Source: DASRDR01 sp963812945 [NCBI: uncultured Candidatus Rokubacteria bacterium]
Lineage (GTDB): Bacteria > Methylomirabilota > Methylomirabilia > Rokubacteriales
Direction: 5' to 3'
Length of the DNA: 64,000 nt
Assembly (NCBI GenBank): GCA_963812945.1
Contig: CAWEXD010000008.1
Location: 2,914,001-2,978,000, forward strand
The notes below the pieces were generated by a model. The model made no database searches, was not told where the DNA came from, and saw only the letters and a program-made list of their open reading frames with translations. Within the stretch, counting starts at the first letter, position 1. The number at the start of each line of letters is the position of its first letter. The position numbers and the translations under genes are program-made. Below, one piece after another: positions 40,078 through 40,770 of the stretch.

Positions 40078-40770
40078 ATGCCGACCCATATCGGACGCGA
40101 CGACGTGCAGCGGCTGGTGGCGGAGGGCGCCCAGCTCGTCGAGGTGCTGCCCAAGAAAGAGTTTGACGAGCAGCATCTTCCGGGCGCGATCCACCTCCCA
40201 CTCCGGCAGATCGACGCGGGGGGCAGGGCCCGCCTGGATCCCGCGCGACCCGTCATCCTCTACTGCTGGGACTCCGCCTGAGACCTGAGCCCACGAGCCG
40301 CGTGGCGGCTCGAGAGCCTCGGGTTCCGCGACGTCTACGACTACACGGCGGGCAAGCTGGACTGGCTGGCGGCCGGACTCCCCATCGAGGGCGAGGCCGC
40401 CGGCCGGCCGACCGCGGCGACGGTCGCGCGCCGGGACGTCCCGATCTGCCATCTCGAGGACTCCCTTCGGGGCGTTCGAGCCCGGGTCCGAGCGGCGGGG
40501 TGGAACGCCTGCGTCGTGGTCAACGAGGCGCGGATCGTCCTGGGGCTCCTCCGCGCTGAAGAGCTCGGCCTGGACGAGACCCTCACGGCCGAGTCCGCCA
40601 TGCGCCCCGGCCCGAGCACCTTCCGACCGCACGTGCCCATCGCCGAGATGGCCGAGGTCATGGCGGAGCACGATCTCCCGAACGCGCCCGTGACGACGTC
40701 GGCGGGCGAGCTGATCGGCCTGCTCGTCCGCGAGGATGCGGAGCGAGTGGCGCACGAGCGCAACGCGTAG
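40078..40770 (+). CDS. Rhodanese-CBS protein with in-frame UGA in the active-site loop (candidate selenoprotein)
   Basis: Reading through one TGA (40279-40281) yields a 230-residue protein. Residues 1-110 are a rhodanese domain: [20 protein letters not shown], then [10 protein letters not shown]-(UGA)[19 protein letters not shown]. Residues 175-228 resemble a CBS half-unit ([20 protein letters not shown] then [18 protein letters not shown]). Relatives I recall have Cys at the UGA position (YC-x-D-x-x-C-D-L-S). UGA replaces UGC five residues after Cys63 in the catalytic loop. The 162 codons after the UGA have no other stop and keep domain-quality sequence. A 7-bp hairpin follows 13 nt after the UGA. 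Alternative: a recent nonsense mutation leaving a 67-residue fragment. Confidence 0.6.
40295..40311 (+). promoter_or_regulatory. SECIS-like hairpin downstream of the in-frame UGA
   Basis: GAGCCGC (40295-40301) pairs perfectly with GCGGCTC (40305-40311) around a GTG loop. The loop begins 20 nt after the UGA and its first base is G. Bacterial SECIS elements are described as a small stem-loop placed roughly 16-37 nt after the UGA with a G early in the apical loop, so this fits. In 70 %-GC DNA such hairpins also occur by chance. Confidence 0.4.

What the first reader, a model, noticed from the sequence alone, without database searches (positions are those of the whole stretch)
40078..40770. Candidate rhodanese selenoprotein: UGA at an active-site-loop Cys position plus SECIS-like hairpin
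Seen: one TGA (40279-40281) splits an otherwise continuous 230-codon frame. The text after it ([19 protein letters not shown], then a CBS-like end) is the expected continuation of the same rhodanese protein, with no other stop over 162 codons. The UGA sits five residues after the catalytic-loop Cys63, where relatives have Cys. A 7-bp stem with GTG loop (40295-40311) places its loop 20 nt after the UGA. Known: bacterial Sec insertion needs such a stem-loop directly downstream, and Cys-to-Sec exchange in redox loops is the usual pattern. Inference: U68 is selenocysteine. A recent nonsense mutation is the rival explanation, and the nearby frameshifted genes keep it alive.
Basis: partly seen in the sequence, partly recalled or inferred. 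Interest (0 to 1): 0.75.

Follow-up and report, generated by a model that had tools for sequence, protein, structure and literature searches.

The report
Selenocysteine rhodanese fused to CBS domains
The "stop" codon that splits this sulfur-handling gene is almost certainly read as the rare amino acid selenocysteine, because dozens of related genes keep the same stop codon and the same RNA hairpin behind it; databases currently cut the gene in two.

Summary
Window 40078-40770 is one gene for a 230-residue protein: a rhodanese domain and a CBS pair, with an in-frame UGA at codon 68. The UGA is not a private mutation: it stands at the same aligned codon in 44 of 50 examined places of one phylum sample and 23 of 24 of another; the exceptions carry Cys (6) or Ser (1). 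An 8-bp stem with a GUG loop, 20 nt behind the UGA, fits the published bacterial SECIS model and is conserved as RNA: third codon positions inside it are frozen (GCG 59/59, CGG 54/54, CTC 59/59). SelA was found in 53 of 58 UGA-carrying genomes, SelB in 18 of 22 tested, tRNA-Sec firmly in 23 of 36. A full-length Cys form in Nonomuraea still holds most of the hairpin. The motif C-x4-U with a CBS pair was not found in the 2026 catalogue of prokaryotic selenoproteins, and plasmid annotation splits the gene at the UGA. It is a new variant of a known kind (rhodanese-like selenoproteins). The substrate is unknown; the window's own genome was not available for a machinery test.

The parts
40078..40770 (+). 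Gene for a rhodanese-CBS selenoprotein (230 residues, U68), stop TAG
   Evidence: conserved in relatives
40067..40073 (+). GGGGGAG, plausible ribosome-binding site 4 nt before the ATG
   Evidence: read directly; inference
40102..40371 (+). Rhodanese domain, residues 9-98
   Evidence: Pfam PF00581 E 1.7e-12; fold match to BH2092 3nhv
40264..40266 (+). Codon of the catalytic-loop Cys63 (TGC)
   Evidence: Cys in 59 of 59 aligned full genes
40279..40281 (+). UGA, proposed Sec68, last position of the six-residue active-site loop (C-x4-U)
   Evidence: TGA in 44 of 50 and 23 of 24 examined places, Cys or Ser in the rest
40294..40312 (+). SECIS hairpin: 8-bp stem 40294-40301/40305-40312, loop GUG 40302-40304
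40435..40764 (+). CBS pair (about residues 120-229); Pfam finds one CBS, at 173-221
   Evidence: and predicted structure

Best explanation
The gene makes a selenoprotein. A hairpin starting 12 nt after the UGA recruits SelB with selenocysteyl-tRNA, so the ribosome inserts Sec at codon 68 and goes on to the TAG at 40768 (strongly supported by comparison, not shown experimentally). The product is a rhodanese domain whose loop Y-C63-x-D-x-x-U68-D carries the usual catalytic Cys and a Sec at the last loop position, joined to a CBS pair. Proposed chemistry (inference, about 0.4): Cys63 takes up sulfane sulfur as a persulfide, or an oxidised substrate, and Sec68 acts as the fast resolving partner, forming a Cys-Sec selenenylsulfide that thioredoxin or a small thiol reduces; the CBS pair may tune this by binding an adenine nucleotide (inference, about 0.3).
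For: UGA at the same aligned codon in 44 of 50 examined places (36 genomes) of one phylum sample and in 23 of 24 places (all 22 matching genomes) of a second. Cys at that codon in 5 relatives of the first sample and 1 of the second, in paralogues beside two UGA genes (C-x4-C), in a full-length rhodanese-CBS gene of Nonomuraea gerenzanensis and in the solved homologue BH2092, PDB 3nhv. The hairpin meets the three bSECIS criteria visible in the passage of PMC13188914 (3-9 nt loop with 4-16 bp stem, G in the first two loop positions, 16-37 nt spacing). In 66 sequences 97.2% of 528 stem cells pair, against 26.9-59.3% in slid controls, with a C-G to U-A change in 6. In 59 full genes third positions in the stem have zero entropy at Ala75, Arg77 and Leu78, against 1.12-1.95 bits at the 30 other listed codons with four-fold third positions outside the stem. 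The part after the UGA is under purifying selection (dN/dS 0.22-0.52 in 13 of 13 comparisons). SelA in 32 of 36 UGA genomes of the first sample versus 153 of 260 others (p = 0.0002) and in 21 of 22 of the second; SelB in 18 of 22 different genomes tested. In G240 selA, selB and tRNA-Sec lie in a row. Other window genes end in TGA, so TGA is a normal stop there.
Against: The window's own genome is not held, so its machinery is untested, and the 64 kb hold no tRNA-Sec. tRNA-Sec by itself is not enriched: 23 firm of 36, against 162 of 296 in the whole draw (p = 0.16); the looser count of 25 of 36 includes two weak matches in the score range of a tRNA-Ser. Three UGA genomes (G259, G203, G181) show neither SelA nor SelB nor a firm tRNA-Sec, a fourth (G040) has tRNA-Sec only; completeness is unknown. 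G385 of the second sample lacks SelA. In the pair count two of five measures do not exceed shuffles (pairs changed on both sides 1, reached by 214 of 500; further pair types 2, reached by 500 of 500), and the compensatory change looks like one inherited event. Neighbouring genes are not conserved, so function rests on fold and motif only. The R. marinus copy has its N-terminal part in another frame and L091 is frameshifted.
Confidence: 0.93

Rival explanations
1. A recent nonsense mutation or sequencing error in an ordinary Cys gene (TGC or TGT changed to TGA).
For: A nearby gene is frame-broken (ABC substrate-binding gene, by eye, 36361-37966), and more distant homologues have Cys.
Against: The same TGA is kept in 44 of 50 and 23 of 24 examined places, in relatives 37-68% identical, with a frozen hairpin and purifying selection after it.
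Confidence: 0.02
2. The family is a selenoprotein family, but the window's organism lost, or never had, the Sec machinery, so the window copy makes only a 67-residue truncated rhodanese or is a relic, perhaps acquired horizontally.
For: The window's HflX-type GTPase is at most 47% identical (alignments of 300 or more residues) to that of the genomes drawn from either sample, while its rhodanese is up to 68% identical and falls in a mixed clade with 98 SH-aLRT: compatible with transfer. Own genome not available. Transposase genes lie in the window, 9 kb or more away.
Against: The window copy has an intact 8/8 hairpin and scores 71.4 bits to the family model (its own sequence helped build the model), and an intact frame under selection after the UGA.
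Confidence: 0.05
3. UGA read through as another amino acid (Trp suppression or a reassigned code), or two separate proteins, a rhodanese fragment and a CBS protein, as annotated.
For: The PLSDB gene table shows two genes in both Pseudonocardia plasmids and only the CBS part in R. marinus (that table is incomplete).
Against: Other window genes stop at TGA; the aligned residue elsewhere is Cys, once Ser, never Trp; the rhodanese domain spans the UGA and would lose the helix after its loop; the hairpin and the SelA association point to Sec.
Confidence: 0.01

Closest known systems
TsoB, rhodanese/DsbD fusion-like selenoprotein (NCBIfam NF045694, 'form 5', UxxxxU)
   Same: Rhodanese domain with two chalcogen residues five apart; weak profile match with no net gap over residues 54-115 (E 2.5e-6).
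   Different: 25.9 bits against a cut-off of 805; TsoB is listed with two Sec and a DsbD-like part, this family has Cys plus one Sec and a CBS pair. That the second U of TsoB aligns with U68 is likely but was not seen residue by residue.
Rhodanese-like selenoproteins forms 1-4 (UxxS, UxxG, CxU, UxxG; PMC13188914 table)
   Same: Rhodanese-like selenoproteins; forms 1, 2 and 4 are filed under PF00581, form 3 under NF041203.
   Different: The motif here is CxxxxU and the catalytic Cys is kept; form 3 model NF041203 scores 17.4 bits against a cut-off of 115.
BH2092-type single-domain rhodanese, PDB 3nhv/3o3w (Bacillus halodurans)
   Same: First rhodanese in the fold-match list, 28% identity over about 109 columns, with YCWGPAC aligned to YCWDSAU.
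   Different: Cys in place of Sec; a chain of 144 residues without the CBS pair.
Nonomuraea gerenzanensis rhodanese-CBS (NZ_LT559118)
   Same: Full-length architecture, 45.6% identity; stem still 7 of 8 paired.
   Different: TGC (Cys) instead of TGA.

Membership tests
Bacterial selenoprotein | In-frame UGA inside a conserved domain, conserved in homologues | tested here: met
Bacterial selenoprotein | Cys in homologues at the UGA codon | tested here: met
Bacterial selenoprotein | SECIS hairpin: loop 3-9 nt with stem 4-16 bp, G in the first two loop positions, 16-37 nt from the UGA (model as seen in PMC13188914; a further criterion was cut off in the passage) | tested here: met
   8 bp, GUG loop, 20 nt
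Bacterial selenoprotein | SelA, SelB and tRNA-Sec in genomes carrying the gene | tested here: met
   in the majority of relatives, not all: SelA 32 of 36 and 21 of 22, SelB 18 of 22 tested, tRNA-Sec firm in 23 of 36; SelD not searched
Bacterial selenoprotein | Sec machinery in the window's own genome | not testable with these tools
   no genome held
Bacterial selenoprotein | Se found in the protein | not testable with these tools
   bench experiment
Rhodanese-like domain (PF00581) | Profile above gathering score and catalytic-loop Cys | tested here: met
   48.1 bits against 22.2; Cys63 in 59 of 59
CBS domain pair | CBS fold in tandem | tested here: met
   Pfam CBS 36 bits against 24, one copy; the pair rests on the structure model (best pLDDT 89.3; two of five models at 69) and fold matches to CBS pairs
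CBS domain pair | Nucleotide binding | not testable with these tools
   needs a binding assay
TsoB (NF045694) | Score above the curated cut-off | tested here: not met
   25.9 bits against 805
NF041203 rhodanese-related (seleno)protein, CxU | Score above the curated cut-off | tested here: not met
   17.4 bits against 115

The most novel reading that the evidence does not exclude
An undescribed, widespread selenoprotein family: a nucleotide-responsive sulfane-sulfur (or metal/metalloid) redox enzyme in which a catalytic Cys and a Sec at the last position of the rhodanese loop form a selenenylsulfide pair, gated by a fused CBS pair. It spreads between lineages and on plasmids, and some descendants (Nonomuraea) have reverted from Sec to Cys while still carrying the relic of the SECIS hairpin.
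Probability: 0.35. Interest if true: 0.7.

Novelty: new variant of a known kind. Interest (0 to 1): 0.57.

Why it matters
It adds a form of rhodanese selenoprotein (Sec at the last loop position, CBS fusion) that is common in two phylum samples (36 of 296 and 22 of 201 genomes carry the UGA form; the tool does not say whether the two phyla differ), yet is cut in two in the annotated plasmid records seen. The nearly frozen SECIS inside a coding region gives a clean natural data set for the sequence needs of SelB, and the Cys form with a relic hairpin is a candidate case of Sec-to-Cys reversal, which the 2026 review calls rare.

Tried and rejected
Hairpin as stand-alone proof: rejected, 30 of 1462 TGAs in the window have something similar. 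tRNA-Sec enrichment: not significant (p = 0.16); SelA was the better marker. Both tests treat related genomes as independent. Operon context: of 25 loci compared (L104 and L115 are one place) only the gene itself recurs widely; the next three clusters are overlapping frames of it. ArsR-type genes recur in 5 loci, MFS-type in 4 of the cluster (and are annotated in both Pseudonocardia plasmids), a heavy-metal ATPase in 2, a MerB gene in 1: about half of the loci have one of these within 5 kb, but no single neighbour is in more than 5, too scattered to fix a function. Dual Sec: one relative listed with two TGAs (L074) has the second as its normal stop. Viral and phage collections: no relative. 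Rfam: nothing in the window at gathering score, nothing at E up to 1 in 40200-41260. Placing the window by its HflX-type GTPase (name recalled from its Pfam domains): at most 47% identity over 300 or more residues in either sample, so the phylum stays unknown; my impression of a Methylomirabilota-like soil bacterium is recalled and untested. Whether Nonomuraea lacks SelA: inconclusive. Of 25 plasmid records with a match only the four best were opened; the other 21 match less than half of the query and their codon was not examined.

Full report
WHAT IS THERE. Window 40078-40770 (+) reads for 230 codons apart from one TGA at 40279-40281 and ends at TAG. Pfam gives Rhodanese over residues 9-98, spanning the TGA, and a CBS domain at 173-221. 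An AlphaFold2 model from five sequences (Cys in place of Sec; best mean pLDDT 89.3, pTM 0.71; two of the five models only about 69) shows strand 59-62, a loop and helix 70-80, the usual rhodanese active-site layout, followed by a CBS pair. The best PDB fold matches are CBS-pair proteins (MgtE, AcuB); the first rhodanese is BH2092, 3nhv, at rank 14. By sequence 3nhv aligns YCWGPAC with the loop YCWDSAU.

THE UGA IS CONSERVED. In 296 genomes drawn from the phylum of the first, 42 had a match at E <= 1e-20, 52 matches in all. I fetched 50 of the 52; G055 and G120 were not fetched, and their matches begin at query residues 85 and 70, past the site. At aligned codon 68, 44 have TGA, 5 TGC and 1 TCA; the 44 come from 36 genomes. 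In 201 genomes of the phylum of G003, 22 had matches, 24 in all: 23 TGA and 1 TGC; one of the 23 (L091) is frameshifted. Whether the two phyla differ was not told by the tool. The PLSDB gene table splits both Pseudonocardia genes into 'rhodanese-like' and 'CBS domain-containing' at the UGA and lists only the CBS part in R. marinus (that table is incomplete by its own account). The R. marinus N-terminal part lies in another frame, so that copy may be damaged or misread.

CYS FORMS. The five TGC relatives of the first sample, the one of the second, and the paralogues beside two UGA genes match only over the rhodanese part and have the loop C-x4-C. The Ser form (L065, G061) is full-length and its genome also carries a UGA form (L040). 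Nonomuraea gerenzanensis has a full-length rhodanese-CBS gene with TGC. In a quick tree of 63 rows it pairs with one Sec form (SH-aLRT 93, end branch 1.1) among Sec forms, compatible with Sec-to-Cys change. Its stem still pairs at 7 of 8 positions; the nine rows of other Cys or Ser forms pair at 2-6 of 8 (the L025 and L026 paralogues are in that count). Of 72 UGA rows (three duplicates included) 57 pair at 8, 13 at 7, 1 at 6 and the frameshifted one at 3.

THE HAIRPIN IS A CONSERVED RNA. The stem is 40294-40301/40305-40312 with loop GUG, 20 nt after the UGA; the 52-nt fold is -27.5 kcal/mol, z -2.7, matched by 2 of 200 shuffles, and includes further outer pairs. It meets the three criteria of the bacterial SECIS model visible in the passage of PMC13188914 (the passage was cut before a further one). 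On 66 of 67 unique sequences (L091 left out) 97.2% of cells pair, against 26.9-59.3% when one side is slid; the two end pairs of the stem fail in 8 and 7 sequences. One pair is C-G in 60 and U-A in 6; those of the six that are in the tree fall in one clade, so this is probably one event. Two of the five covariation measures do not exceed shuffles. The strongest signal is synonymous: in 59 full genes the third positions of Ala75, Arg77 and Leu78 never vary (GCG 59/59, CGG 54/54, CTC 59/59) and Ala74 is GCC or GCT only, whereas the 30 other listed codons with four-fold third positions outside the stem have 1.12-1.95 bits. A model built from the alignment finds only this place with confidence in the window (71.4 bits; next 11.6; the window sequence was part of the model). 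By itself a hairpin of this kind is not rare in this GC-rich DNA: 30 of 1462 TGAs.

SELECTION AND CODE. After the UGA dN/dS against 13 relatives is 0.22-0.52, before it 0.18-0.44 (dS is often near or above 1, so the ratios are rough; a 14th relative, L024, was not in the set). The amidase gene, the ABC permease (by eye) and the helicase gene of the window end in TGA, so TGA is a stop in this genome.

MACHINERY. First sample: SelA (E <= 1e-40) in 32 of 36 UGA genomes and 153 of 260 others, p = 0.0002. tRNA-Sec: 25 of 36 with loose filters, of which two (G152, G181) score 50-51 bits, the range of a match that ARAGORN calls tRNA-Ser (L009), so 23 firm; strict search 162 of 296 overall, no enrichment. 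Second sample: SelA 21 of 22. SelB: 4 of 4 and 15 of 19 chosen genomes (the four misses are the four SelA-negative genomes that I put in on purpose), G003 being in both, hence 18 of 22 different genomes. ARAGORN reads the anticodon TCA in the best locus of each of G001-G003; G004 has SelA and SelB but no tRNA-Sec found. In G240 selA, selB and tRNA-Sec lie side by side. Against: G259, G203 and G181 show neither SelA nor SelB nor a firm tRNA-Sec, and G040 only the tRNA; completeness is unknown. The window's own genome could not be tested.

HOW IT PROBABLY WORKS. Supported by comparison: recoding of UGA as Sec through a SECIS. Inferred: Cys63 (59 of 59) is the nucleophile and Sec68, at the end of the same loop, its resolving partner; the motif Y-C-x-D-x-x-U-D-x-[SAG]-x-R-A-A holds in 58 or 59 of the 59 genes at each named position. 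A further Cys124 near the start of the CBS part is kept in 53 of 59 and might take part. The CBS pair suggests control by a nucleotide. Neighbours do not fix the substrate: about half of the 25 loci have an ArsR-type, MerB, heavy-metal ATPase or MFS gene within about 5 kb, none of them in more than 5 loci.

WHAT IS KNOWN. The 2026 review PMC13188914 (passages seen) lists five rhodanese-like selenoprotein forms (UxxS, UxxG, CxU, UxxG, and TsoB UxxxxU); a search of its main text found 'CxxxxU' and 'CBS' zero times. PMC9312934 (passages) has no 'CBS' either. PMC5029168 and PMC1794560 (passages) mention a rhodanese-like sulfurtransferase selenoprotein family and, for Rubrobacter xylanophilus, five selenoproteins, without this form in the passages shown. 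Searches for selenocysteine + rhodanese + CBS domain and for rhodanese + selenocysteine + Actinomycetota returned 0 papers; the listings name none on this form in title or opening of abstract. No NCBIfam model reaches its cut-off for the window protein or five relatives; of interest are TsoB at 25.9 of 805 bits and NF041203 at 17.4 of 115. The library lacks most subscription journals, so prior description elsewhere is not excluded. Verdict: new variant of a known kind.

ORIGIN. The window gene sits in a mixed clade of both samples (22 rows, SH-aLRT 98) and is up to 68% identical to them, while the window's HflX-type GTPase is at most 47% identical over alignments of 300 or more residues (higher values, up to 54%, only over shorter ones). 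This is compatible with horizontal transfer; a control for normal identity of that GTPase within a phylum was not run.

Noticed in passing
window 40780-40960, - strand: Several pieces resembling tRNA T-arms (GGGTTCGAATCCCG and two looser ones) lie between this gene and a PLD/helicase/DUF3427 gene; ARAGORN and Rfam find no tRNA. Possibly remnants at an insertion site.
   Followed up: partly
window 41248-44325, + strand: 1025-residue protein with PLD-like, ResIII/DEAD helicase and DUF3427 domains; its link to mobile or defence elements is recalled, not tested.
   Followed up: partly
window 36361-37966, + strand: ABC substrate-binding gene (by eye) whose protein continues in another frame from about 36866: pseudogene or sequencing error.
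   Followed up: no
window 28649-30157, 49490-50716, 51045-52493: Integrase-core and two transposase genes (Mutator and DDE types): mobile elements in the window.
   Followed up: no
L025 and L026: A second, Cys-type (C-x4-C) rhodanese gene lies directly beside the UGA gene in two related genomes.
   Followed up: partly
L118 2888-3586: MerB-type alkylmercury lyase gene, the second gene upstream of the Sec-rhodanese on a Pseudonocardia autotrophica plasmid.
   Followed up: partly
G117 contig C18: The Sec-rhodanese lies about 3 kb from selA and about 10 kb from selB on the same contig; seen once, could be chance.
   Followed up: no
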